Program-made: the position numbers and the translations under genes
Source: Pontiella sp.
GTDB taxonomy: Bacteria > Verrucomicrobiota > Kiritimatiellia > Kiritimatiellales > Pontiellaceae
Length of the DNA: 21,618 nucleotides
Reading direction: 5' to 3'
Assembly (NCBI GenBank): GCA_029939385.1
Contig: JAOZSZ010000004.1
Location: forward strand, 1-21,618
Shown here: piece by piece, positions 3,511 through 19,573 of the stretch
How positions within the stretch are numbered: the first letter of the stretch is position 1
Layout: the number at the start of each line of letters is the position of its first letter
The notes under the pieces: generated by a model
What the model saw: the letters and a program-made list of their open reading frames with translations, nothing else
What the model was told of the DNA's origin: nothing
Databases searched by the model: none

Positions 3511-4674
3511 TTAGAAGACGCGCGTCATACCAAAGGTCAGCGAATTTTGATACATGCTGATCGTTGTGTCAGTCCCCATAACACCTCCACCTAAATCCTC
3601 ACCATCGGCTGTCAGATCATTTTCCAGAGCATGGATATAGGCAAAATGAGCCGCCCATTTTTCCCATGCATAGGATGCGCCGCAGGCCAGATGAGTTTCC
3701 ATGATAGCAGGGAAGAGAGCATTGCTCATTGCAGTATCTTCATCAATTGGTGACTTGCCATAGGAGAAACCTCCACGCAGCGTCAGGGACTCCGTCACGC
3801 CCCAAGTAACACCCGCTTTTACAATATTCTGGTTTTCCCAACCGAATCCATTTGGAAATGTGCCCCCGAAAGTATCGAGCTCCCCCCAGCCAACCCAACG
3901 ATAATCGAGCGCTAGCTCCAGATTATCCAATACGTTGTAGGCTGCGCCCACAGTGATCTGTTGCGGAAGATTAAGAGAATCCCTCAGTACACTATCAGGA
4001 CCCATAGCAGGCCCCGTGTAATCATCGAAGTCCGACATAAACTGTTCTGACATATAGCTTCCACCAATCGTAAAGCGGCCAATGTGTTGATTAATCCCGA
4101 TAATTGCTCCCACGCCATATGCCGTATCCCACTCTCCAGAGGATCCCATCATATCCGTCTTAAATTGGGAAATTACAAAAATGGGTCCCGCTCCTATACT
4201 AAAACCGCTATCACCAAATTTATAGGCATAGGTTGCCGTCATCTTAGCAATAGAAAGTTCCGTCATTGAACCCATAGCTCCCAGCCCAGGAGAATAATCT
4301 ACGCCCATTCCGCTGGTACCATAGATCCCCAATCCCAACGAACCATTTTCACCATGACAGCAACCAAAGGAGGTACTGATGGAAGGAATTACAAATGCGG
4401 AGTGATCGGACTGCTCGCCCGCAGGACTCGTTGTAGAATTCATCGTACGCACTGGCGCGAAAATCTGGAACGAGGCATCGACGCTCATTTCCACGTCGGT
4501 TAATCCGGCAGGGTTGAGGATGAGCCAGGTGGAATCTTTAGCGGAAGCGACACCGGCGCCGGCGGTTCCCTGCTGGACCGGGCCAATACCGATCAGGTTA
4601 ATACCTTCTGTGGCGTGAATTTGAATGGTTACTGCCGCGATGGCCACCACGATTACTGCTAGACGCATTTTCAT
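3511..4674 (-). CDS. OmpP1/FadL family outer-membrane transport protein
   Basis: A predicted 387-residue outer-membrane beta-barrel of the FadL/TodX type, which takes up long-chain fatty acids or other hydrophobic molecules. A signal peptide covers about residues 1-21 (basic start, hydrophobic core, cleavage near I-H-A/T-E-G). The N-terminal family motif L-N-P-A-G-L lies at 53-57. The rest is alternating, aromatic-rich beta-strand sequence, and the chain ends in Arg-Val-Phe, a terminal aromatic used for barrel assembly. The AAGGAG ribosome site is about 9 nt upstream of the ATG. FadL-family proteins are broad, so the substrate cannot be named. It is slightly shorter than E. coli FadL. Confidence 0.87.
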   Translation of the reverse strand: MKMRLAVIVVAIAAVTIQIHATEGINLIGIGPVQQGTAGAGVASAKDSTWLILNPAGLTDVEMSVDASFQIFAPVRTMNSTTSPAGEQSDHSAFVIPSISTSFGCCHGENGSLGLGIYGTSGMGVDYSPGLGAMGSMTELSIAKMTATYAYKFGDSGFSIGAGPIFVISQFKTDMMGSSGEWDTAYGVGAIIGINQHIGRFTIGGSYMSEQFMSDFDDYTGPAMGPDSVLRDSLNLPQQITVGAAYNVLDNLELALDYRWVGWGELDTFGGTFPNGFGWENQNIVKAGVTWGVTESLTLRGGFSYGKSPIDEDTAMSNALFPAIMETHLACGASYAWEKWAAHFAYIHALENDLTADGEDLGGGVMGTDTTISMYQNSLTFGMTRVF

Positions 4675-4703
4675 CCCCTGACTCCTTATTAATTAAACTA
4701 ATT

Positions 4704-4709
4704 ATTATA
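4704..4709 (-). promoter_or_regulatory. Possible -10 box for the porin gene
   Basis: On the minus strand this reads TATAAT, about 30 nt upstream of the porin ATG. No good -35 hexamer is seen at 16-18 bp. Confidence 0.4.
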
Positions 4710-4895
4710 GCTGAGGCCTGTTAGACCAGTTTCACTGACACACCGCAAGTGCTAATTTTAGTCTTTAAAACCTTCAAATATTAATATTTCGATATTCTTA
4801 TTTATTGATCTATCGGCTCTATTCCCAGAGATCAAAGGCTAATTTCTCCTCAAATAATCCGGCTCAGATAAGATGATCTTAAAAAACCCCGAAAA

Positions 4896-4927
4896 TTGAA
4901 TTGGGGTGAATATAAAAATATTATAAT
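4896..4927 (+). promoter_or_regulatory. Promoter with overlapping palindrome upstream of the ArsR-type regulator
   Basis: A perfect TATAAT -10 box lies at 4922-4927. The -35 is either TTGGGG (4901-4906, spacer 15) or TTGAAT (4896-4901, spacer 20), neither ideal. An inverted repeat TATAA-AAATA-TTATA (4911-4925) overlaps the -10 box and could be the operator of the adjacent ArsR-type repressor; that role is inference. The rest of the 4675-4954 intergenic stretch is AT-rich and shows no other clear element. Confidence 0.5.
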
Positions 4928-4954
4928 ACCTGAGCCTCGAATTCGGAGAACGGT

Positions 4955-5254
4955 ATGATTCAAGAAGAGCGAAATATTGCAGCAGATGTTTTAAAAGCCA
5001 TGGCACACCCCATTCGACTGGGCGTGATCGAAGTGCTAACGGACGGAGAAAAGACGATTACTGAACTCTACGAAGAACTAGAGTGCAGTCAGTCTATGAT
5101 GTCGCAACAATTAAAGATTCTCTGTCAACAAAAGTTGGTCACTATCCGTAAAGACGGCACACAGAAATATTGTAGTCTGAGCAATCGCGACTTCCTGAAA
5201 CTATTCGATTGTATGCACATACACCTTCGTAAGTTTCTACATTTTAAAGACTAG
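4955..5254 (+). CDS. ArsR/SmtB family winged-helix transcriptional regulator
   Basis: A 99-residue regulator with the ArsR core: A-D-V-L-K-A-M-A-H-P-I-R-L (about 10-22), then a helix-turn-helix recognition helix S-Q-S-M-M-S-Q-Q-L-K-I-L (45-56) and the wing R-K-D-G-T-Q-K-Y-C (65-73). Family members repress until a metal or oxidised or persulfidated thiol releases DNA. Four cysteines are present (C44, C57, C73, C86), but the C-V-C metal motif of ArsR is absent. C44 sits just before the recognition helix, as in the persulfide sensors BigR/SqrR, and C86 is in the C-terminal helix. A dithiol sulfur switch is therefore plausible but unproven. GGAG precedes the ATG. The gene opens the sulfur cluster and probably controls it. 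Confidence 0.88.
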   Translation: MIQEERNIAADVLKAMAHPIRLGVIEVLTDGEKTITELYEELECSQSMMSQQLKILCQQKLVTIRKDGTQKYCSLSNRDFLKLFDCMHIHLRKFLHFKD

Positions 5255-5255
5255 C

Positions 5256-5282
5256 GTTCTGAACGTTCAGAACCCAGGTTCT
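5256..5282. promoter_or_regulatory. Two overlapping palindromes between the regulator and the CoA-disulfide reductase fusion
   Basis: GTTCTGAACGTTCAGAAC (5256-5273) is a perfect 18-bp palindrome starting one base after the regulator's stop codon. Its right arm is shared with a second palindrome, AGAACC-CA-GGTTCT (5269-5282). It could be an operator, or in RNA two mutually exclusive hairpins. There is no T run, so a simple terminator is unlikely. Confidence 0.6.
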
Positions 5283-5349
5283 CCATTATTTTTCAGGCAG
5301 GCATTCCAACTTATTATTTATTAGTGAATCAGAATTAAAAGGTAACGAT

Positions 5350-7803
5350 ATGAAAACAAAAAAACTCCTTATTGTCGGCGGCGTGGCCGGTGGCGCTAGT
5401 GCAGCAGCACGCGCACGGCGATTAGATGAAAATGCAGAAATCATCCTCTTTGAACGCGGTCCTGACATCTCTTTTGCCAATTGCGGACTCCCTTACCACA
5501 TTGGAGGAGAAATCCAAGAGCGGGAAAAATTGCTGGTGACCACCCCCGAATTAATGATGTCCAAATATAATTTTGATGTGCGCGTTCAAACGGAGGTGCT
5601 CTCTATTGATCCTGATAAAAAAGAGGTTGTGGCTAAAAACCTTAAAACGGGCGAAGAATATACCGAAACCTACGATGCGCTTATTCTCAGCCCCGGCGCA
5701 TCGCCCATGCGCCCCCCGATTCCAGGAATCGAAAACCCTCATGTCTTAACCTTACGCAACTTAGAGGACATGGATAAAATTATCGGCCGGCTTGAAAACA
5801 AAAAAACCGCGGCGGTGATTGGGGGTGGATTTATTGGACTAGAAGTGGCGGAAGCGCTACGGGAACGGGGCGTGAATACCACCTTAGTCGAACTGGCCCC
5901 TCAAGTGATGGGCCCGGCCGACCGAGAAATGGCCACCCCCCTCCATCAAGAAATGCGTCTATTTGGAGTCGATCTCCGGCTGGAGACCTCGGTCACTGAA
6001 TTTAAAGAAGCGGAGGATGGCGTAACCCTAATCCTGAGCGACGGAAAAAGCCTCACCGTGGATGTCACCATTCTCGCTATTGGCGTTATTCCTGAAACTA
6101 AACTAGCGGTTGACGCCGGGCTAGAGATTGGAACGACCCGCGGGATTAAAGTGGACGATCACATGAAAACGTCCGATGAAAATATTTATGCCGTCGGGGA
6201 TGCGGTAGAAATTACGGACTATATCACTCGGCAGCCTGCACTCATTCCTCTGGCTGGGCCGGCTAACCGGCAGGGCCGAATTGCCGCCGACAATATCTTT
6301 GGGCGCGACAGCGTCTATAAAGACACGCAAGGCACCTCCATTTGTAAGGTCTTTAATATGGCCATCGGAATGACGGGCCTGAGCGAAAAAACAGCGAAGC
6401 GAACAGGAACGCCTTACGAAAAAATCTATGTCCATCCGGCCAGTCATGCATCTTATTATCCCGGATCACATCCGATTAGCTTTAAGTTACTTTTTGATCC
6501 TACAACAGGAAAAGTACTTGGAGCTCAAGCGGTCGGCGCGGACGGGGTTGACAAACGGATCGACGTTATTTCGGTTGCGATTCGTGCCGGACTCACCGTG
6601 GAAGATCTGGCGGAAATGGAACTCTCTTATGCGCCCCCTTTTGGTTCAGCAAAGGATGTGATCAACTATGCTGGATTCGTTGCCGGAAACGTCCTTTCGG
6701 GAGATATCGAAATCTTCCACTCCGAAGAGGCCATAAAACCCAAGGATCATCAGAAGCTCCTCGACGTTCGACTGGTGGAAGAAACCCTCATCGGAACCAT
6801 CCCGGGTGCAAAAAACATTCCCCTCGAAGAGCTTCGAGAAAAACTGGAGACCCTCTCCAAAGAAAAAGAATATCTCATCTTCTGTCAAGTGGGACTCCGC
6901 GGCTACCTTGCTTACCGGATTCTCACCCAAAATGGATTTAAGTGCCGGAACCTAAGCGGCGGATATAAATCCTATATGATGGCAACTGATCAGCAAATTG
7001 CCTCCATTCCTGAAGCAGAAACCATGAATACCGATACCGGCGAGAAAGTCCTTCAAATAAAGAAAGGACCCATCGTCCCCGTCACTGAGGTCGATGCCTG
7101 TGGTCTTCAATGCCCCGGCCCTATCATGAAGCTAAAGGCCGCATTAGATGCGGTAAGAACGGGCGAGGCCATTGCCATTACCTCCACCGATCCCGGCTTT
7201 GCTTCCGATATTCCTGCATGGTGCAACTCGACGCAAAACAAACTCGAGTCCCTCGATCCCATCAAAGGCGGCGGTTACCGAGCAATCATCTCCAAACGCA
7301 ACGGCGGTGACGTTTGCCCAAGCATCCAAACCCGCCCGAAACGCTTTACCAACGTGGTCTTTAGTCAGGATCTCGATAAAGCGCTCGCGGCCTTCATTAT
7401 CGCAAATGGCGCCGCCAGCATGGGATATGAAGTTACGTTATTCTTCACCTTCTGGGGATTGAACATTCTTCGTAAAGAAAAAGCCCCTCCCATGAAAAAG
7501 AACTTCATTGAACGTATGTTCGGAATAATGATGCCAAGGGGCCCCAAAAAACTAGGGCTTTCAAATATGAATATGGGCGGAGTCGGAGCAACCATGATCG
7601 AAGGGATCATGAACAAAAAGAATGTGGCCTCCCTGCCGGAACTCATTACGGCCGCTCAAGAAGCGGGGGTTAAGCTAGTCGTCTGCACAATGTCGATGGA
7701 TCTAATGGGCATTAAACGCGAAGAACTGATCGATGGCATTGATGAAGGCGGTGTTGCCATGTATATCGACCAGATCGATGGCGATGCCACCCTGTTCATT
7801 TAA
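5350..7803 (+). CDS. Four-module fusion: CoA-disulfide/NADH persulfide reductase - rhodanese - TusA - DsrE2
   Basis: An 817-residue multidomain sulfur-transfer flavoprotein. Residues 1-440 form an FAD/NAD(P)H disulfide reductase of the CoA-disulfide reductase/Npsr type. They carry an FAD-binding G-G-V-A-G-G-A motif (10-16), redox cysteine C45 in S-F-A-N-C-G-L-P-Y, the NADH Rossmann motif V-I-G-G-G-F-I-G-L-E, and A-V-G-D-A. Residues about 455-545 are a rhodanese domain with active-site C512 in F-C-Q-V-G-L-R-G. Residues about 580-650 are a TusA domain with D-A-C-G-L-Q-C-P-G-P (C584, C588). Residues about 663-817 are a DsrE2-like domain with C779 in V-C-T-M-S-M-D. All four modules keep their cysteines, so sulfur could be released from persulfide or polysulfide and passed along the chain; that relay is inference. 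The AAGGT ribosome site is upstream. The gene is followed closely by OsmC and thioredoxin genes. Confidence 0.93.
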   Translation: MKTKKLLIVGGVAGGASAAARARRLDENAEIILFERGPDISFANCGLPYHIGGEIQEREKLLVTTPELMMSKYNFDVRVQTEVLSIDPDKKEVVAKNLKTGEEYTETYDALILSPGASPMRPPIPGIENPHVLTLRNLEDMDKIIGRLENKKTAAVIGGGFIGLEVAEALRERGVNTTLVELAPQVMGPADREMATPLHQEMRLFGVDLRLETSVTEFKEAEDGVTLILSDGKSLTVDVTILAIGVIPETKLAVDAGLEIGTTRGIKVDDHMKTSDENIYAVGDAVEITDYITRQPALIPLAGPANRQGRIAADNIFGRDSVYKDTQGTSICKVFNMAIGMTGLSEKTAKRTGTPYEKIYVHPASHASYYPGSHPISFKLLFDPTTGKVLGAQAVGADGVDKRIDVISVAIRAGLTVEDLAEMELSYAPPFGSAKDVINYAGFVAGNVLSGDIEIFHSEEAIKPKDHQKLLDVRLVEETLIGTIPGAKNIPLEELREKLETLSKEKEYLIFCQVGLRGYLAYRILTQNGFKCRNLSGGYKSYMMATDQQIASIPEAETMNTDTGEKVLQIKKGPIVPVTEVDACGLQCPGPIMKLKAALDAVRTGEAIAITSTDPGFASDIPAWCNSTQNKLESLDPIKGGGYRAIISKRNGGDVCPSIQTRPKRFTNVVFSQDLDKALAAFIIANGAASMGYEVTLFFTFWGLNILRKEKAPPMKKNFIERMFGIMMPRGPKKLGLSNMNMGGVGATMIEGIMNKKNVASLPELITAAQEAGVKLVVCTMSMDLMGIKREELIDGIDEGGVAMYIDQIDGDATLFI

Positions 7804-7818
7804 CGTTTAAGGGGAAAG

Positions 7819-8238
7819 ATGATGTGGACCTACAAAACCTCGGTTGACTGGAAAGCAGGAAAAACAGGCGAAACCCGTTGCGGCGGAAAGCCGGTTATTG
7901 AAGTGGCCACTCCTCCAGAATTTGGGGGGCCCGAAAATATTTGGACCCCCGAAGACCTGCTGACGAGTGCGGTGGCAACATGCATTATGACCTCCGCTCT
8001 ATTCTTTGCCGACCGGGCAAAAATCCAACTGCGTTCCTATAAAAGCAACGCCATTGGAACCCTAGAAAAAACGAAAGCTGGATTGGCTATCACTCGGATT
8101 ACGGTCGCGGTCTCCATTGAGCTCGACAACATGGAGCAGGAAGCGGCGACACGAAAAGCTGTGGAGCAGGCAGAAAAAACCTGCCCAATAACCAACTCGC
8201 TAAACTGCCCCGTCGAACTCAGCCTTCATATAAGCTAA
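7819..8238 (+). CDS. OsmC family protein (first copy)
   Basis: A 139-residue OsmC/Ohr-fold protein. Motifs are G-G-P-E-N-I-W-T-P-E-D-L-L-T-S-A-V-A-T-C (about 36-55), with the first conserved cysteine C55, and E-K-T-C-P-I-T-N-S-L, with the second, C122. Two such cysteines form the peroxidatic pair in this superfamily, which reduces organic hydroperoxides and in some members acts on sulfane sulfur. C21 and C130 are additional. The ribosome site AAGGGGA precedes ATG-ATG, so the start could be either Met1 or Met2. It begins 15 nt after the fusion gene and is surely in the same transcript. Confidence 0.9.
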   Translation: MMWTYKTSVDWKAGKTGETRCGGKPVIEVATPPEFGGPENIWTPEDLLTSAVATCIMTSALFFADRAKIQLRSYKSNAIGTLEKTKAGLAITRITVAVSIELDNMEQEAATRKAVEQAEKTCPITNSLNCPVELSLHIS

Positions 8239-8254
8239 AAAAAGGAATCCTTTC

Positions 8255-8797
8255 ATGGTCATTAAACTCCTCATAGGAATACTCATCGGAGCAGGGATTG
8301 GTGCCGTGATTGGCCATTTTGGAAAATGTTCTTCAGGAGGTTGCCCCCTCACCGCCAACCCCTTCCGGGGCTCCCTTTACGGAGCGGTTATGGGAGCCCT
8401 CTTTGCGCTCTCTTCTACAGGAGGAAATCCCCAATCCACGGTTTTAACAGAGGATCAGCCGGCCCCTGGCGAAGGCATTATTCAGGTCACCACCGCCGCA
8501 GATTTTAACCAATACATTATCCAAGCCTCCCTGCCTTGTTTGGTTGATTTCTATTCCGACCACTGCCCTCCCTGTCGTCAGCTTGCTCCAATCATTAAAA
8601 AGTTGACCCAAAAATACCAAGGCCGCGTAGTCGTCTGCAAAATTAATGTAGACACCGCCACTTCGCTCTCAATCCCTTATGGAATTGATGCGGTTCCCTC
8701 CGTTCTCTTTTTCCAAGACGGCGAAGAAGTGCAACGGGAAATTGGACTGCAATCGCAAGAAACCTATGAATATGCCCTTGATCAAATGCTGAAATAG
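8255..8797 (+). CDS. Membrane-anchored thioredoxin with N-terminal DUF6132-like domain
   Basis: The first about 55 residues contain two hydrophobic segments (about 4-22 and 39-53) joined by a loop with G-K-C-S-S-G-G-C-P-L-T-A-N-P, matching the small cysteine-bearing DUF6132-type membrane domain. A linker (about 55-76) leads to a thioredoxin domain (about 77-180). The active site is H-C-P-P-C (C104, C107) instead of W-C-G-P-C, and the conserved cis-proline is in A-V-P-S-V. CxxC thioredoxins reduce disulfides or persulfides. The changed dipeptide should alter the redox potential; the effect cannot be read from sequence. Loop cysteines C25 and C30 could act as a second dithiol. AAGGAAT precedes the ATG. 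It sits between two OsmC genes in the same operon. Confidence 0.87.
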   Translation: MVIKLLIGILIGAGIGAVIGHFGKCSSGGCPLTANPFRGSLYGAVMGALFALSSTGGNPQSTVLTEDQPAPGEGIIQVTTAADFNQYIIQASLPCLVDFYSDHCPPCRQLAPIIKKLTQKYQGRVVVCKINVDTATSLSIPYGIDAVPSVLFFQDGEEVQREIGLQSQETYEYALDQMLK

Positions 8798-8819
8798 CGC
8801 GCAACCCTAGGAGATAAAA

Positions 8820-9239
8820 ATGGAAATTCGCAAAAAAGATATCACCGTGAGCTTCCCCGGCGGGAAGCGGGTCGACGCACACTATGGGGACCGCACGGTC
8901 CAAACCGATCAATCCGTCAAGAACGGAGGCGAAGGCTCCGGCCCCGAGCCCTTCGATCTGTTTTTCGTTTCGATGGCCACTTGCGTAGGCATCTATGTGC
9001 TGGAGTTCTGCACCACACGAGATCTCAGCACGAAAGGTCTGGATGTCCGCCTCTATTCCGAGTTTGACCCCGAAGAAAAACGCTATCCTAAAATCTCAAT
9101 TGATATCTCCTTGCCCGAGGACTTTCCTACCAAATATAAAAAAGCGATCTGGCGAGCCGCCAATCTTTGTACGGTGAAAAAGCACATCCTAACCCCGCCC
9201 GAATTCAACATCACGCTGGACAGAAACTCCGTTTCTTAA
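8820..9239 (+). CDS. OsmC family protein (second copy)
   Basis: A 139-residue OsmC-like protein, clearly diverged from the first copy. Motifs are G-S-G-P-E-P-F-D-L-F-F-V-S-M-A-T-C (about 40-54), with C54, and A-A-N-L-C-T-V-K-K-H (C117). These are the two conserved cysteine positions of the family; C64 is extra. The downstream context N-L-C-T-V-K-K is typical of the YhfA-like branch rather than Ohr. TAGGAGA lies 6-7 nt before the ATG. Its stop codon is followed by a strong hairpin. Equal length but low similarity to the 7819 gene suggests separate roles rather than a recent duplication. Confidence 0.9.
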   Translation: MEIRKKDITVSFPGGKRVDAHYGDRTVQTDQSVKNGGEGSGPEPFDLFFVSMATCVGIYVLEFCTTRDLSTKGLDVRLYSEFDPEEKRYPKISIDISLPEDFPTKYKKAIWRAANLCTVKKHILTPPEFNITLDRNSVS

Positions 9240-9254
9240 ATAGAGAAACTCCGT

Positions 9255-9298
9255 AAAAATACGTTTCTTGACCTCGGTCAAGGAACGTATTTTTGTTT
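9255..9298 (+). terminator. Strong intrinsic terminator or attenuator inside the sulfur cluster
   Basis: A 19-bp inverted repeat runs from AAAAATACGTT (9255-9265) to AACGTATTTTT (9284-9294), with one G-T wobble, a tip near CTCG, and a T-rich tail to 9298. It follows the second OsmC gene and precedes the iron-sulfur gene. It may end the first transcript or set lower expression of the last two genes. No convincing new promoter is seen in the 42 nt before the next ATG. Confidence 0.88.
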
Positions 9299-9339
9299 AA
9301 GGCATACTGCATCCAACATTTTAAGAAAAGGAAGCCGAT

Positions 9340-10143
9340 ATGAAACGAAAAATTATCGAAGTGAACGAAGCCCTCTGCAACGGATGCGGGGAATGTGTGG
9401 TGGGATGCGCAGAAGGAGCGCTACAAATTATTGATGGGAAAGCGAAAGTCGTGAAAGAACAGTTTTGCGATGGCTTCGGCGACTGCATCGGAACCTGCCC
9501 AACAGGCGCCCTAAAAATTATCGAACGCGAAGCCGATGCTTATGATATTGCTGCAACGCGCGAACATGTTCTCAACACCGGTGGCGAAAACGCCGTTAAA
9601 CGCTTCGACGAAGTGAATGAAGTCCACGATGCCAAAGAAAAAGCGGATACTCCGCCTAAAATGAGTGGATGCCCCGGAACACAAATGAGAATGAAAAAAG
9701 CCGCAGAAGGTCCGAAACCAACGATGAATACAACCCTCTCAGGCCAAGTAATTAAGTCCGATCTTGACCAATGGCCCATCCTGCTTCACCTCGTTCAGCC
9801 CGGCGCCGAATTCTTTAAAAATAAAGAACTCGTTATTCTCAGCACCTGCTCTCCAGTTGCATCGCCCGACGTTCACTGGCGCTTTGTCCGCGGGCGCTCT
9901 CTCGTTGTAGCCTGTCCGAAGCTTGACCGCACCGAAGGCTATGTTGAAAAACTAGCGGGGATTATGGCTCAAAATAATATTCCAAAAGTAATCGTCGTTC
10001 GCATGACCGTTCCCTGCTGCGGCGGACTCAGCATGATGGCCCGGCAAGCACATGCCGCCAGTGGCCGCACCGATCTGGTTATTGAAGAAGTCACGATTGG
10101 GCTCGACGGTGAACTTATGAATACCGAAACCATTATTGGATAA
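9340..10143 (+). CDS. Cysteine-rich protein with two N-terminal [4Fe-4S] sites
   Basis: A 267-residue protein. Residues 1-60 form a bacterial ferredoxin-type domain: cluster I C13-x2-C16-x2-C19-x3-C23, cluster II C43-x5-C49-x3-C53-P. The C5 spacing in the second motif (C-D-G-F-G-D-C) is a known variant. The C-terminal region has conserved-looking cysteine sites: G-C-P-G (C111), S-T-C-S-P (C170), V-A-C-P-K (C192) and V-P-C-C-G-G (C226-C227). I recognise it as a ferredoxin-containing protein family often seen in anaerobes, but its reaction is unknown to me. Electron transfer to or from the reductase fusion is a guess from context. AAGGA precedes the ATG. The stop codon is 10 nt before the cupin gene. 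Confidence 0.85.
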   Translation: MKRKIIEVNEALCNGCGECVVGCAEGALQIIDGKAKVVKEQFCDGFGDCIGTCPTGALKIIEREADAYDIAATREHVLNTGGENAVKRFDEVNEVHDAKEKADTPPKMSGCPGTQMRMKKAAEGPKPTMNTTLSGQVIKSDLDQWPILLHLVQPGAEFFKNKELVILSTCSPVASPDVHWRFVRGRSLVVACPKLDRTEGYVEKLAGIMAQNNIPKVIVVRMTVPCCGGLSMMARQAHAASGRTDLVIEEVTIGLDGELMNTETIIG

Positions 10144-10153
10144 AGGCAACGCC

Positions 10154-10483
10154 ATGGATGAATTAAAAGGGAACGTATTAAATCTGAAAGCCGAAATTGC
10201 CTATGCCGACGGGGCTGTGATTAGCAAAACGCTACTTAAAAAAGAAACCGGGAATATTACCCTCTTCTCCTTCGACAAGGGGCAAGGACTCAGCGAGCAT
10301 ACCTCGCCCTTCGATGCCGTCGTTCACGTGGTCGAAGGCGAAGGTGCTTTCATTATTGATGGTAAAATGAAAACCGCAAAAGAAGGCGAAATGATCATTA
10401 TGCCCGCCAACATCCCGCACGATGTCCAAGCCGCAGAACACCCCTTTAAGATGCTTCTAACCATGATCCGGTCGGAGACATAG
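10154..10483 (+). CDS. Small cupin-domain protein
   Basis: A 109-residue single-domain cupin. Motif 1 is S-E-H-T-S-P-F-D-A-V-V-H-V-V-E-G-E-G (H49, H58, E61). Motif 2 is E-G-E-M-I-I-M-P-A-N-I-P-H (H89). These give a plausible metal site. Enzymatic versus binding role is not predictable. The ATG at 10154 is preferred over an upstream TTG at 10136, because AAAGG lies 9 nt before it and the TTG would overlap the previous gene. The last codons and stop lie at the left edge of the 118-bp direct repeat, so the C-terminus (R-S-E-T) may have been shaped by repeat insertion. Confidence 0.85.
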   Translation: MDELKGNVLNLKAEIAYADGAVISKTLLKKETGNITLFSFDKGQGLSEHTSPFDAVVHVVEGEGAFIIDGKMKTAKEGEMIIMPANIPHDVQAAEHPFKMLLTMIRSET

Positions 10484-10598
10484 CCCCGAAGATCACCGAA
10501 GAGCCGCGCAACGTAGGTCCCCGATGTAATCTCGAAGCGAGCGGAAAGAAAAAGTCCCGACCCGTAAATACGGATCGGGACTTAGATTGGAGCGAGCG
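10481..10598. repeat. 118-bp direct repeat, copy 1
   Basis: Matches 10612-10729 with six substitutions; the last 72 bp (10527-10598) are identical. It contains a full copy of the tRNA-Gly terminator hairpin and the last 11 bases of tRNA-Gly (10588-10598), but no tRNA body. Copies are separated by 13 bp. The cupin stop codon (10481-10483) is the first three bases of this copy. Confidence 0.92.
10549..10582 (-). terminator. Duplicated terminator hairpin (copy 1)
   Basis: On the minus strand AGTCCCGATCCGTA pairs with TACGGGTCGGGACT and is followed by TTTTT. It is identical to 10680-10713 and could serve as a second, backup terminator for the tRNA operon. Confidence 0.8.
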
Positions 10599-10611: not shown

Positions 10612-10729
10612 TAGCCCCGGAGATCACCGAGGAGCCGCGCGACGTAGGTCACAGATATAATCTCGAAGCGAGCGGAAAGAAAAAGTCCCGACCCGTAAAT
10701 ACGGATCGGGACTTAGATTGGAGCGAGCG
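10612..10729. repeat. 118-bp direct repeat, copy 2 (overlaps tRNA-Gly 3' end)
   Basis: Partner of 10481-10598. Its right end is the CCA-end and 3' acceptor strand of the intact tRNA-Gly. A short GGGGC-GTA-GCCCC hairpin spans its left boundary. Confidence 0.92.
10680..10713 (-). terminator. Intrinsic terminator after tRNA-Gly
   Basis: A long hairpin with one G-T wobble and a minus-strand T run, placed just 3' of tRNA-Gly. It ends the rsmD-coaD-tRNA-Ser-tRNA-Gly transcript. Confidence 0.88.
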
Positions 10730-16755: not shown

Positions 16756-18297
16756 ATGGTGAGAAAAGCATTAAACCGCCCGAATGGGATGCCTGTTAAC
16801 CTTCTTTTATCCGGCCGACCCTGCCTGGTCGTCGGAGGAGGAAAGGCGGCTGGGAATAAAATTCAATTATTACTCGATGCCGGCGCCCAAGTGGCAATCA
16901 TTAGTCCAGACGTCTCTCCCGAAGTGGCTCAACTTATTGAAAAAGGGTTGATCACTCACACCGTTCGCGCCTTTAAAGATCATGATATTGAACATGCAAC
17001 CCTTGTGTATGCCGCCACCAACAACCGCGCGGTTAACGGTCAGGTTCTCGAAGCCTGTCGTAAAAAAAACATTCTTTGCTCCTGCGTCGATGGCAACTGG
17101 GCGCAGGGCGACTTCACGACCCCGCCCCTTATTCGGCATAATCAGCTGACTGTATCGATTTCCTCCGGAGGCAATGACGGCCGCCAATCCAAAATGATCA
17201 AAAACAGTTTAGCGCGTCACCTCAAGATGATGGATACCGCCAATCTGGTTGTGGTCGGCACCGACCACAACCACCTAACGCTAGAAGAACGCGAACCCTT
17301 TCATCTGACCGGTCATCGCTTGGAGCGCGGTGGATTCATGATCATGCAGCTCTGGGGAATCCATGAATTCATGATTCTTAATACGTGCAACCGCATCGAA
17401 GTGATTGCGGTTGTTTCCGATGAAACGGCACACAATGAAATTCTCCGCCATGTCATGGGTTTCGCGACTCTAAAAGAAGATAAGTTTTACCTCAAAAAGG
17501 GGAAGGCCGCGTTCGAACACCTCTGCCTAGTCTCCGCCGGCATGCTCTCGCAGACCCCCGGCGAAAACCACATCACCGCTCAGATAAAAGAAGCGCTCGA
17601 AACCGCCAAACACCGCGGCTGGGCCAGCAATATGATTCAGGAGTGGATCTCTACCGCCTTACACGTTTCAAAACAGATCAAGAACTCGGTCGCCCCGCTT
17701 TTGCACAGCTATGAGATCGAAGCGCTGGCGTTAAAATATCTTGAGGCGAACCATCATCCTCTCGCCTCCTCTACGCTCATGATCCTCGGTGCAGGAACGA
17801 TTGGAAAAAGCCTCATAAAAGAGGGCTGGCCAACCACACAAAAAATAATCTGGTGCTACCATATCCAGAAGCCCGAAATCCCCAAAGAATGGGAACGTAA
17901 CGTCGATCTCTGCACCTTCAATGATATGAAAGAGCGCATCGCCGAAGCCGACATCATCATTAGCGCAACCGAAACAACCGGCCATTTACTACACCTCGCC
18001 CACGCCCCTTTCTTTAACCAAGAGCGCCCCGTTATACTGCTCGACCTCGGCATGCCGCGCAATATTGACCCCAAGCTAGACTCCCTTTCATCCAACATTA
18101 CCGTCATTGACCTCGATGGCCTTAAATATTGGTACCGCCGCGAACTCACCGATATAAACGATATTCTCGCGCGCTGCCGCGCCGTTGTTACCGAACATCA
18201 GGATCTCTATGAAAAGATCGCACACAGTTTTCAAAGCGGGAACGCGCCCCAGTCATCTTGCGCTCACTCAGACCCGTCAGGCGCTCGATCGACTTGA
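16756..18297 (+). CDS. hemA: Fusion of Met8/CysG-type precorrin-2 dehydrogenase and glutamyl-tRNA reductase
   Basis: Residues about 12-158 match the siroheme-synthase N-terminal domain: L-V-V-G-G-G-K-A-A-G-N-K (24-35), C-V-D-G-N-W-A-Q-G-D-F (110-120, catalytic Asp likely D112) and S-I-S-S-G-G (134-139). That domain oxidises precorrin-2 and may insert iron to make siroheme. Residues about 164-460 are glutamyl-tRNA reductase, the first step of C5 tetrapyrrole synthesis. It has G-T-D-H-N-H-L-T-L-E-E-R-E-P-F (168-182), catalytic C211 in N-T-C-N-R-I-E, and an NADPH site L-G-A-G-T-I-G. The chain ends at 513, so most of the usual C-terminal dimerisation domain is missing. The start is uncertain: no ribosome site precedes the ATG at 16756, and Met12 is an alternative. 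The 3' end overlaps hemC by 89 nt. Confidence 0.9.
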   Translation: MVRKALNRPNGMPVNLLLSGRPCLVVGGGKAAGNKIQLLLDAGAQVAIISPDVSPEVAQLIEKGLITHTVRAFKDHDIEHATLVYAATNNRAVNGQVLEACRKKNILCSCVDGNWAQGDFTTPPLIRHNQLTVSISSGGNDGRQSKMIKNSLARHLKMMDTANLVVVGTDHNHLTLEEREPFHLTGHRLERGGFMIMQLWGIHEFMILNTCNRIEVIAVVSDETAHNEILRHVMGFATLKEDKFYLKKGKAAFEHLCLVSAGMLSQTPGENHITAQIKEALETAKHRGWASNMIQEWISTALHVSKQIKNSVAPLLHSYEIEALALKYLEANHHPLASSTLMILGAGTIGKSLIKEGWPTTQKIIWCYHIQKPEIPKEWERNVDLCTFNDMKERIAEADIIISATETTGHLLHLAHAPFFNQERPVILLDLGMPRNIDPKLDSLSSNITVIDLDGLKYWYRRELTDINDILARCRAVVTEHQDLYEKIAHSFQSGNAPQSSCAHSDPSGARST

Positions 18298-19573
18298 AGG
18301 AATGCTTAAAGGGATTACCTTTGAAATGATTCCAATCGCCTCGATGGGGGATCTAGATCGAGCCACCGACTTGCGCGAAGGCCCGGCCAACTTCTTCACC
18401 CGCGAACTCGATGCCGCCCTCCTGCGCGGTGAGGTTGACCTTGCCGTTCATAGCGCCAAGGATCTCCCCGATCCCCTGCCCCCAGGCATCGACGCCTTCT
18501 GGCTTCCTGAGCGCGAAGAGCCGCGCGATGTCCTCGTACTTTCCAAAGGCCAAAAGATTTCCGAGCTCCCCAAAAACCCCATCATCGGCGTCAGCTCCGA
18601 CCGCCGCGCGGCCTACTGCACCCGCCGTTTTCCCTGCGGCATCCAAAAAAATATCCGAGGAAACATTGAAGAGCGCATCGCGCAGGTCGATGCCGGCGAT
18701 TTCGACATCGTCGTTATGGCCGCCGCCGCACTCATCCGTTTAGGGATCGAGGAACGAATCACCGAATGGATTCCACTCAACGAACTGGCGGTTCCCGAAG
18801 GCCAAGGCTATCTCGCCATCACCCTCCGTAAAAACGAACCCTCCCCCCTGCGAACGCTCTTTCCGCTGGCGGGAAAAAAAGTCCTTCTCACCTGCTCCGA
18901 AGCCCTTCAAGAAAAAACGGCCGCACTCGTTCGCGCCGGAGGAGGGCATCCTATTCAGCTCCCGCTCATCCGACTCCAATGTAGACGGAGCTTCCAGCTT
19001 CGTTGCGCAGAATTCGATTGGGTTGTCATCACCTCCCCCTCCGCCGCGCGATGCCTGAGCCAAAGCGACGGGGACGTCGCTTCTACGAAATGGATGGCCT
19101 GCGGACAGGGCACTGCCGATGAACTTCTAAAAAAAGGAATTCAAGTTGAGGCCCAGCCGGAATCAAACTATAGCGCCGATGCGCTCATCCAGCTCGCACA
19201 AAAAACAATCCGCCCCGGCGAAAAAATCCTGCGCCTTCGCTCCGACAAAGCGGGACCACAACTCGCCGAAGCTCTACGCGAAACCGGCGCAACGGTTGAA
19301 GACACCATTCTCTATAATAATAAATCGATTGAATACGACGCGCTCCCCGATTTTGATGTCCTCTTTTTTGCTAGCGCCTCCGGCGTCGAAGCATTCATTC
19401 AACAATGGGGCACGCAACCCCTCGGCGGAAAAACGATTTTAGTGATTGGTGCCCCTACGGCCCTTGCCTTGAAAAAACACCGACTCAAGCCCAATATCAT
19501 CGCCCCCGAAGCCACCGCCTCCTCCGCAATCCAATCCCTTACCCCCTATTTTTTAGCCCAAATGATAGAGTAA
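18209..19573 (+). CDS. hemC-hemD: Fusion of hydroxymethylbilane synthase (lacking domain 3) and uroporphyrinogen-III synthase
   Basis: A 454-residue protein that should turn porphobilinogen into uroporphyrinogen III. Residues 1-218 match HemC domains 1 and 2: K-A-G-T-R-P-S-H-L-A-L (9-19), H-S-A-K-D-L-P (81-87, catalytic D85), S-S-D-R-R (129-133), R-G-N-I-E-E-R (150-156) and V-P-E-G-Q-G-Y-L-A-I (195-204). Right after this, at L-A-G-K-K-V-L-L-T-C (about 220-229), HemD begins and continues to 454 with I-T-S-P-S-A-A and Y-S-A-D-A-L motifs. The third HemC domain, with the cysteine that holds the dipyrromethane cofactor, is absent. The ATG at 18209 is chosen: AGGA is 7 nt upstream and the family motif starts nine residues later. 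hemB follows after 55 nt. Confidence 0.9.
   Translation: MKRSHTVFKAGTRPSHLALTQTRQALDRLEGMLKGITFEMIPIASMGDLDRATDLREGPANFFTRELDAALLRGEVDLAVHSAKDLPDPLPPGIDAFWLPEREEPRDVLVLSKGQKISELPKNPIIGVSSDRRAAYCTRRFPCGIQKNIRGNIEERIAQVDAGDFDIVVMAAAALIRLGIEERITEWIPLNELAVPEGQGYLAITLRKNEPSPLRTLFPLAGKKVLLTCSEALQEKTAALVRAGGGHPIQLPLIRLQCRRSFQLRCAEFDWVVITSPSAARCLSQSDGDVASTKWMACGQGTADELLKKGIQVEAQPESNYSADALIQLAQKTIRPGEKILRLRSDKAGPQLAEALRETGATVEDTILYNNKSIEYDALPDFDVLFFASASGVEAFIQQWGTQPLGGKTILVIGAPTALALKKHRLKPNIIAPEATASSAIQSLTPYFLAQMIE

What the first reader, a model, noticed from the sequence alone, without database searches (positions are those of the whole stretch)
4955..10483. Compact persulfide/polysulfide handling cluster under an ArsR-type regulator
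Seen: an ArsR-family gene followed, same strand and mostly 15-25 nt apart, by a reductase-rhodanese-TusA-DsrE2 fusion, OsmC, membrane thioredoxin, OsmC, then, past a hairpin, a 2x[4Fe-4S] protein and a cupin. Known: CoADR-rhodanese enzymes reduce persulfides, TusA and DsrE carry sulfur, and BigR/SqrR-type ArsR proteins sense persulfide. Inferred: the set senses sulfane sulfur, strips it with NADH, passes it along TusA/DsrE to an unknown acceptor, and uses OsmC and thioredoxin to deal with persulfidated thiols. The co-occurrence of two OsmC types, a thioredoxin with a non-standard active site and an iron-sulfur protein is the part I do not recognise as a described pathway.
Basis: partly seen in the sequence, partly recalled or inferred. 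Interest (0 to 1): 0.75.

Follow-up and report, generated by a model that had tools for sequence, protein, structure and literature searches.

The report
Bacterial operon for handling reactive sulfur
An uncultured bacterium's gene cluster looks built to sense and reduce reactive sulfur chains, and it faces a gene for an outer-membrane channel with an unusual conserved pair of cysteines that may be the entry door for that sulfur.

Summary
The seven genes are real. Five look like one unit: ArsR, a CoA-persulfide-reductase/rhodanese/TusA/DsrE2 fusion, OsmC1, DUF6132-thioredoxin (CPPC) and OsmC2, followed by a strong hairpin. The iron-sulfur/cupin pair behind it mostly lies elsewhere in related genomes and is probably not part of the pathway. 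Best reading: an ArsR-controlled sulfane-sulfur reductase module of Kiritimatiellales. The fusion is known from Bacteroides fragilis. BigR/SqrR-type sensing is not supported: the first SqrR cysteine position is Glu in 28 of 28 orthologs, which share C44, C73 and C86 instead. Distant FadLs beside Hdr/DsrE2/TusA clusters carry a CPC motif elsewhere. I propose, unproven, that FadL admits sulfane sulfur. New variant of a known kind; interest 0.6.

The parts
3511..4674 (-). FadL/TodX-like outer-membrane beta-barrel (387 aa), divergent from ArsR; vicinal Cys C105-C106 encoded at 4357-4362, third Cys C331
   Evidence: Pfam Toluene_X 67.2 bits, E 1.3e-18; only solved chain found, CymD 6z34, E 6.5e-8; divergent from ArsR within 700 bp in 15 of 28 loci; C105-C106 in 15 of 15, C331 in 12 of 15
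4675..4954 (.). divergent FadL-ArsR control region; conserved AT block ATATAAAAATATTATAAT at 4910-4927 in front of ArsR
   Evidence: upstream alignment of 28 ArsR loci; promoter-like pair 4896-4924 (+), but the scan finds no more sites than shuffles (8 v 8.2); dyad AACATTA-N8-TAATGTT is 14/14 in 3 of 8 family-f2 loci, while the window's own best score is at chance level
4955..5254 (+). ArsR-family regulator, 99 aa; Cys44, Cys57, Cys73, Cys86
   Evidence: C44, C73 and C86 in 28 of 28 orthologs, C57 in 27 of 28, SqrR first-Cys position Glu in 28 of 28
5350..7803 (+). four-domain fusion: CoA-disulfide/persulfide reductase (C45) - rhodanese (C512) - TusA (C588) - DsrE2 (C779), 817 aa
   Evidence: Pfam/NCBIfam; PDB 3nta E 1.4e-198, 8a56 CoA-persulfide reductase E 6e-153; cysteine conservation over 28 loci
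7819..8238 (+). OsmC1 (Ohr-like, Cys55 and Cys122; Lys15 where aligned Ohr chains have Arg)
8255..8797 (+). DUF6132 membrane segment (C25, C30) fused to thioredoxin (CPPC, C104-C107)
8820..9239 (+). OsmC2, like the OsmC part of TIGR03549 OsmC/YcaO proteins (Cys55, Cys117)
9254..9295 (+). terminator-like hairpin after OsmC2
   Evidence: fold z -5.68; not listed by the consensus terminator scan
9340..10143 (+). iron-sulfur protein, 4+3 Cys plus a C-terminal Cys-containing domain (PF27217 by precomputed label); probably a separate unit
   Evidence: near the module in 6 of 23 loci
10154..10483 (+). small cupin (ORF listed from TTG 10136), partner of the iron-sulfur gene
   Evidence: next to the iron-sulfur gene in 18 of 23 loci, 2 of the 5 misses being at a contig end

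Best explanation
An ArsR-controlled sulfane-sulfur (polysulfide, S8-derived sulfur, CoA-persulfide) uptake-and-reduction module. Inferred steps: hydrophobic or oligomeric sulfane sulfur crosses the outer membrane through the FadL-like barrel, helped by its C105-C106 dithiol. Inside, thiols become persulfides. ArsR, autorepressing, is released when its own Cys set (C44/C73/C86, not the SqrR pair) reacts, switching on fadL and the operon. In the fusion, the rhodanese cysteine and the covalently attached TusA and DsrE2 carry the sulfane sulfur to C45, where NADH/FAD reduces it to H2S and free CoA. OsmC1, OsmC2 and the membrane-tethered CPPC thioredoxin, possibly with the DUF6132 cysteine pair, clear persulfides from low-molecular-weight and protein thiols. 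Where relatives have the Hdr-DsrE2-TusA cluster next door, sulfur may instead be handed to it. Shown here (sequence level): domains, catalytic cysteines, gene linkage, conserved FadL and ArsR cysteines, the hairpin. Inferred: ligand, direction, substrate, transport, regulation.
For: Reductase-rhodanese part: best PDB matches 3nta/4ocg (Npsr by recall), 3icr/3ics CoADR and 8a56, named CoA-persulfide reductase. The Cys replaced by Ser in 3nt6 and 3ntd align with window C45 and C512, both present. Over 28 loci C45 is kept in 27 (1 not covered), C512 in 28, C588 and C779 in 26 (2 not covered). Published relatives: E. faecalis CoAPR reduces CoASSH and is regulated by the reactive-sulfur sensor CstR (PMC9405070, passages); T. 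maritima NSR reduces S0, polysulfide and thiosulfate, stimulated by CoA (PMC9431562, passages). Module: of 19 OsmC2 loci, thioredoxin within 5 kb in 11, OsmC1 in 10, CoADR in 8; outside the window's own family 5, 3 and 4 of 12; control of 17 iron-sulfur-centred loci 0 for each (some contigs shorter than the 5 kb asked). In family f35 a row of DUF6132-Trx, CoADR-like flavoprotein, OsmC2, DsrE and DUF302. FadL: 15 of 28 ArsR loci; CC in 15 of 15; homologues at 52-62% identity with no linkage seen lack it, 0 of 4. Close Cys pair in 18 of 19 sulfur- or ArsR-linked FadLs versus 2 of 12 others (hand count; Fisher). Control: 0 of the 27 full-length frames recovered from 30 phylum FadL-family loci have a pair within three residues beyond residue 25.
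Against: No expression or biochemical data. ArsR lacks the SqrR/BigR cysteine pair, so the ligand is unknown. FadL is missing beside ArsR in 13 of 28 loci, so it is not essential to the ArsR-reductase pair. One regulator-linked FadL (G048) has no Cys pair, and two with a CPC pair (G479, G252) show no sulfur linkage in the 15 kb fetched for each. OsmC2 has none of the three partners in 7 of 12 loci outside the family (several of these contigs are short). The reductase is not always four-domain: in G006 and G048 it is 547-563 aa without TusA-DsrE2 in the frame, and in G027 and G042 the frame is split. The four-domain enzyme's B. fragilis relative was read by its authors as a thiol/disulfide enzyme with a diamide phenotype (PMC6158253, Discussion read). 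In control two proteins (L247, L262) do have a close Cys pair, inside the first 25 residues, which I did not count. The FadL linkage table is not corrected for phylogeny.
Confidence: 0.6

Rival explanations
1. General thiol/disulfide redox repair: the fusion mainly reduces CoA disulfide (and mixed disulfides), OsmC1/2 remove peroxides, and thioredoxin repairs proteins during oxidant stress; sulfur trafficking is secondary.
For: B. fragilis lacking the same four-domain gene is more sensitive to diamide, and deletion of its repressor BmoR changes redox genes (PMC6158253, passages, Discussion). TIGR03385 CoA-disulfide reductase is the top NCBIfam match, though below its cut-off (499.5 v 578.8). 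OsmC1 keeps the Cys55/Cys122 pair in 12 of 12.
Against: Fused rhodanese, TusA and DsrE2, each with its cysteine kept, are sulfur carriers (family knowledge); the Arg seen in aligned Ohr chains is Lys in 10 of 12 OsmC1; recurrent Hdr-DsrE2-TusA neighbours.
Confidence: 0.2
2. Dissimilatory sulfur reduction as an electron sink: the enzyme disposes of fermentation NADH onto S0/polysulfide, like T. maritima NSR, rather than detoxifying.
For: A cytoplasmic CoA-stimulated NAD(P)H polysulfide reductase of this kind exists (PMC9431562, passages); FadL-type entry and Hdr clusters beside it in some relatives.
Against: Repair-type partners (two OsmC, thioredoxin) fit stress handling better; none of the genes in the cluster is a membrane sulfur reductase.
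Confidence: 0.12
3. Arsenic or metal response: ArsR with three invariant Cys senses As(III) or a soft metal, and the reductase set supplies thiols.
For: C44, C73, C86 in 28 of 28, H90 in 11 of 11; an SBF/ACR3-like gene with CBS domains lies beside the two-domain CoADR-rhodanese in own contig C341 and in several relatives.
Against: The SBF-CBS protein scores 85.3 bits against the ACR3 cut-off of 282.8 and is not in the window cluster; no arsenic enzyme is among the window cluster's genes.
Confidence: 0.08

Closest known systems
Bacteroides fragilis BF638R_0572 under MarR-type BmoR (PMC6158253; passages and Discussion seen)
   Same: Same four domains in the same order (CoADR, rhodanese, TusA, DsrE2-type), next to and repressed by its own regulator; a thioredoxin operon responds with it.
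   Different: MarR instead of ArsR; OsmC does not occur in the paper's text and no FadL was mentioned in the parts read; read by its authors as thiol/disulfide balance.
CoA-persulfide reductase CoAPR of the Enterococcus faecalis cst-like operon (8a56); Npsr (PDB 3nta, name recalled); B. anthracis CoADR-RHD (3ics)
   Same: CoADR + rhodanese with both catalytic cysteines; reactive-sulfur-regulated operon in E. faecalis.
   Different: Matched chains of 551-588 residues end at the rhodanese, no TusA-DsrE2; CstR is not an ArsR (recalled); different partners.
SqrR/BigR/SoxR/sHdrR sulfane-sulfur ArsR repressors
   Same: ArsR family, beside sulfur genes, conserved cysteines.
   Different: The two defining cysteines are not at the same positions; Glu at the first in 28 of 28.
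Hdr-like clusters with TusA/DsrE
   Same: DsrE2, TusA and Hdr genes sit next to this module or to FadL in some relatives.
   Different: Not in the window; in the own genome a DsrE2-TusA-FlpD piece lies on another contig, C206.
FadL/TodX/CymD outer-membrane hydrophobic-substrate channels
   Same: Toluene_X family; CymD 6z34 is the one solved chain found.
   Different: Conserved vicinal Cys-Cys and linkage to sulfur genes; no pair within three residues beyond residue 25 in 27 family frames.
FrdX iron-sulfur protein of HcpR/Hcp nitrosative-stress regulons (PMC12915319, PMC1274295, passages)
   Same: Recalled resemblance of the 9340-10143 protein; ferredoxin-like, in anaerobes.
   Different: No match to it at 10 Hcp loci of this class, 4 of them also fetched wider; identity with FrdX not tested.

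Membership tests
CoA-persulfide reductase / Npsr (CoADR-rhodanese) | flavin-site Cys in the NCGLPY motif and rhodanese-loop Cys | tested here: met
   C45 and C512 align with the Cys replaced in 3nt6/3ntd; kept in 27 of 28 (1 not covered) and 28 of 28 loci
CoA-persulfide reductase / Npsr (CoADR-rhodanese) | NADH-dependent reduction of CoA-persulfide/polysulfide | not testable with these tools
   needs purified enzyme
BF638R_0572-type four-domain fusion | order CoADR-rhodanese-TusA-DsrE2 in one chain | tested here: met
   domain table; published table in PMC6158253 (passage)
SqrR/BigR/SoxR persulfide-sensing ArsR | two conserved sensing cysteines (SqrR Cys41 and Cys107 numbering, and the naming of PDB 6o8l/13ct as SqrR, are recalled; that SqrR, SoxR, BigR and sHdrR share the pair is in PMC10451225, passages) | tested here: not met
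   first position Glu26 in 28 of 28; second, by ungapped extrapolation only, Arg92 in 28 of 28; BigR model 52.1 v cut-off 155 bits
Ohr/OsmC peroxidase (OsmC1) | catalytic Cys pair | tested here: met
   C55 and C122 in 12 of 12
Ohr/OsmC peroxidase (OsmC1) | catalytic Arg near the N-terminus (role recalled) | tested here: not met
   Lys15 in 10 of 12, Arg in 1, Glu in 1; the Ohr/OsmC models matched are all below cut-off
ACR3 arsenite efflux (companion in relatives, not window) | NCBIfam acr3 cut-off | tested here: not met
   85.3 v 282.8 bits
FadL/TodX outer-membrane channel | Pfam Toluene_X above gathering score | tested here: met
   67.2 v 29.7 bits
FadL as sulfane-sulfur importer | transport of S8/polysulfide | not testable with these tools
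   needs uptake assay
HcpR-regulon FrdX (iron-sulfur protein) | linkage to hcp | tested here: not met
   no FeS match at 10 Hcp loci, L164-L173, 4 of which were also fetched wider as L190-L193; the six wider-unseen loci have flanks of about 1.5 kb or less

The most novel reading that the evidence does not exclude
FadL-like outer-membrane channels that carry a close cysteine pair (CC here, CPC in a second, distant clade) are dedicated entry ports for zero-valent sulfur: the dithiol attacks S8 or polysulfide and passes a polysulfane to the periplasm, and the port is co-regulated with a cytoplasmic CoA-persulfide reductase by an ArsR with a new three-cysteine sulfane-sulfur sensor.
Probability: 0.27. 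Interest if true: 0.82.

Novelty: new variant of a known kind. Interest (0 to 1): 0.6.

Why it matters
How insoluble elemental sulfur and polysulfide cross the outer membrane is open: one paper, seen in passages, says the membrane proteins for S0 transport in sulfur oxidizers have not been experimentally confirmed (PMC10045233). A single gene with a conserved dithiol, divergent from a sulfane-sulfur operon, makes that directly testable. The ArsR would be another cysteine layout for reactive-sulfur or metalloid sensing in this family, and the recurring OsmC-thioredoxin-CoADR set suggests a function for OsmC proteins that lack the peroxidase arginine.

Tried and rejected
Rejected: BigR/SqrR-type sensing (cysteines not met). 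Rejected: the iron-sulfur/cupin pair as part of the pathway. It is a stable pair of its own (cupin beside it in 18 of 23 loci; 2 of the 5 misses are at a contig end), near the module in 6 of 23, behind a strong hairpin. Rejected: 'non-standard CPPC' as unusual (79 of 120). Tried: linking the iron-sulfur gene to Hcp; Hcp is in 37 of 58 genomes, own included, but no FeS match at the 10 Hcp loci examined. Tried: a shared operator; AACATTA-N8-TAATGTT is strong in family f2 (total score 320 over 28 loci against a mean of 267 and a maximum of 278 in 100 shuffles), but the consensus came from the same sequences and the window's own best site scores 9 of 14, which 92 of 100 shuffles reach. An early note took a paper on YedE1E2 for one on FadL; its main text does not mention FadL. 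Two searches for FadL with sulfur terms gave no title on a FadL sulfur transporter among those listed (3 of 3, 12 of 740), so no FadL precedent is claimed and none is excluded. My note that outer-membrane barrels rarely hold Cys was too strong: 21 of 30 control loci have at least one Cys beyond residue 25. A first simple gene caller hid OsmC genes behind antisense frames and was replaced by homology-based calling.

Literature: the listings (15 of 755 listed) showed no paper on this gene set; the library holds only open-licence papers. The named genome collection was scanned once (17 loci); most relatives used are unnamed.

Rows dropped before counts: FadL copies at contig edges in G018, G037 and G013:C61 (all with CC) were left out of the 18/19 v 2/12 table. 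For five of its twelve 'other' rows (G319, G250, G404, G461, G201) the neighbourhood was not examined; the other seven were seen in 5.6 to 18 kb. The table was counted by hand; only the Fisher test was computed. In one search, 3 of 30 frames were not recovered, pairs within the first 25 residues were not counted (L247 and L262 have one there), and the 30 are the best-scoring family places with a locus, not a random draw.
Full report
WHAT IS THERE. The window is the complete contig C302 of an unnamed, 81% complete genome. The closest named records holding the same genes are titled Kiritimatiellales or Pontiellaceae (one Lentisphaerae), mostly MAGs. The fusion of 817 aa contains a CoA-disulfide-reductase-type flavoprotein, rhodanese, TusA and DsrE2.

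ENZYME. The N-terminal 550 residues match 3nta (Npsr by recall, E 1.4e-198), CoADR 3icr/3ics and CoA-persulfide reductase 8a56. The two cysteines replaced by Ser in deposited variants align with C45 and C512. Across 28 loci the four sulfur-handling cysteines are kept wherever covered; two loci lack TusA-DsrE2 in the frame (G006, G048) and two have split frames (G027, G042). The same four-domain enzyme was described in B. fragilis as BF638R_0572, repressed by BmoR, with a diamide phenotype (PMC6158253, passages and Discussion). The fusion is therefore not new.

REGULATOR. ArsR is followed by the CoADR-rhodanese gene in 26 of 28 ArsR loci, in two families (f1, f2). These loci were chosen because they hold the fusion (26) or OsmC2 (2), so the count shows conservation of order rather than an unbiased rate. 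The regulator keeps C44, C73 and C86 in 28 of 28 and C57 in 27 of 28, but has Glu where SqrR has its first sensing Cys in 28 of 28. [quoted passage not shown] The ligand of this ArsR is open; sulfane sulfur is inferred from the operon.

PARTNERS. OsmC1, DUF6132-thioredoxin and OsmC2 follow with 15-22 nt gaps in the window. In the two loci lacking the reductase gene beside ArsR (G007, G003) the order FadL, ArsR, OsmC1 (Trx in G003 only), OsmC2 remains. In other relatives a DUF6132, DUF302 or DUF4405 gene often follows the reductase, or nothing recognised, the latter in family f2. Searching for OsmC2 alone through the phylum gave 13 of 387 genomes at E 1e-25. Over 19 OsmC2 loci, thioredoxin lies within 5 kb in 11, OsmC1 in 10 and CoADR in 8. 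For the 12 loci outside the window's family the figures are 5, 3 and 4; seven of the twelve have none of the three, among them the four most distant OsmC2 (44-49% identity) and three at 64-67%. Seventeen control loci gave 0 for each partner. Thioredoxin and CoADR together with OsmC2 occur in families f2 (two genomes), f12 and f35. In f35 the row is DUF6132-Trx, CoADR-like flavoprotein, OsmC2, DsrE, DUF302; in f2 it is an SBF/ACR3-like gene, CoADR-rhodanese, (DUF302 in one), Trx, OsmC1, OsmC2. This supports a functional set, assembled in different ways.

IRON-SULFUR AND CUPIN GENES. They stand behind a hairpin of -24.9 kcal/mol with a T run in its 3' arm, which the consensus terminator scan did not list. 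Of 23 iron-sulfur loci, 18 have the cupin next door and 6 lie near the module. In 7 of the 23 (G004, G005, G009, G017, G019, G024, G027) the neighbours include an endonuclease-III-like gene (my reading of the sequence), a Crp-type regulator or hemB. I treat them as a neighbour, not a part. The iron-sulfur protein lacks one cysteine of the second cluster in 119 of 120 homologues.

THE MISSED GENE. Directly divergent from ArsR is a FadL/TodX-family gene, the only member of that Pfam family found in the incomplete own genome. It faces ArsR in 15 of 28 loci. All 15 carry adjacent cysteines C105-C106. Homologues at 52-62% identity that show no ArsR or sulfur gene in the region fetched (the G017 paralog; G115, G478 and G268 of family f20) have no such pair, 0 of 4. 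A distant FadL clade of six members (26-29% identity to the window's) in families f12, f32 and f8 includes three beside Hdr-DsrE2-TusA genes (G052; G449 twice) and one in a row of ArsR, FadL, Pyr_redox_2 flavoprotein (SQR-like by my reading) and DsrE2 (G048). Five of the six have a CPC motif at another site; G048 has not; G479 and G252 have it without linkage seen. Counting linked versus others by hand, a close pair is present in 18 of 19 and 2 of 12 (Fisher p 1.5e-5); this ignores shared ancestry, and five of the twelve others had no neighbourhood check. Of 30 phylum FadL-family loci, 27 gave a full-length frame and none of these has a Cys pair within three residues beyond residue 25, though 21 of 30 have at least one Cys there and two have a pair within the first 25 residues. 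By alignment with CymD the pair falls in what looks like a short turn; which side of the membrane that is was not tested.

MECHANISM AND LIMITS. The proposed flow is outer-membrane entry, thiol activation, persulfide formation, ArsR release, transfer through rhodanese-TusA-DsrE2, NADH reduction to sulfide, and OsmC/thioredoxin clean-up. Only sequence features and gene order are shown; ligand, substrate, direction and transport are inference. Related enzymes give precedent for the reduction step: CoAPR (PMC9405070, passages) and NSR (PMC9431562, passages). For outer-membrane sulfur entry, PMC10045233 (passages) states that the proteins involved are not experimentally confirmed, and describes S0 activation by thiols of outer-membrane proteins in Acidithiobacillus and Acidiphilium; PMC10531304 (passages) names Omp40 as a candidate.

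VERDICT. A conserved sulfane-sulfur module, a new variant of the CoA-persulfide-reductase kind, with a distinct ArsR cysteine layout and a cysteine-pair FadL that deserves an experiment.

Noticed in passing
3511-4674 (-), L233, L237, L239: FadL-like outer-membrane proteins beside sulfur clusters carry a close Cys pair (CC or CPC) at two different sites, suggesting the pair arose more than once.
   Followed up: partly
10481-10598 and 10612-10729: A 118-nt tandem duplication at 95% identity, each copy holding a terminator-like hairpin, between the cupin stop and tRNA-Gly.
   Followed up: no
16756-18297 and 18185-19573: Heme/siroheme gene fusions by Pfam: an NAD-binding_7 domain (precorrin-2-dehydrogenase-like by my reading) with glutamyl-tRNA reductase, and porphobilinogen deaminase with uroporphyrinogen-III synthase.
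   Followed up: partly
5256-5273: An 18-nt perfect palindrome GTTCTGAACGTTCAGAAC between ArsR and the fusion, not seen by eye in the relatives' gaps printed.
   Followed up: no
L136 (G003:C202), after ArsR: Where the reductase gene is missing, the first codons still resemble its start (MKTKRLLIIGGVAGGAS...), as if most of the gene had been lost or the assembly had collapsed.
   Followed up: no
L052 (G000:C206): Own-genome contig with a different ArsR, DsrE2, TusA and FlpD-type gene, a NapH-like ferredoxin protein and a phosphonate-type binding protein; in five relatives (G005, G007, G010, G014, G017) Hdr genes sit directly upstream of FadL.
   Followed up: partly
L231 (G018:C487) and L024 (G018:C335): The FadL gene seems split over two contigs, which would place an SBF/ACR3-like, CoADR-rhodanese, NifU cluster next to the FadL-ArsR-fusion locus.
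   Followed up: no
1-1606: A PAS-SpoIIE phosphatase (377-1606, -) with what looks like a second, cut-off PAS copy at the contig start (antisense frames at 58-282 and 1221-1526 nearly repeat each other).
   Followed up: no
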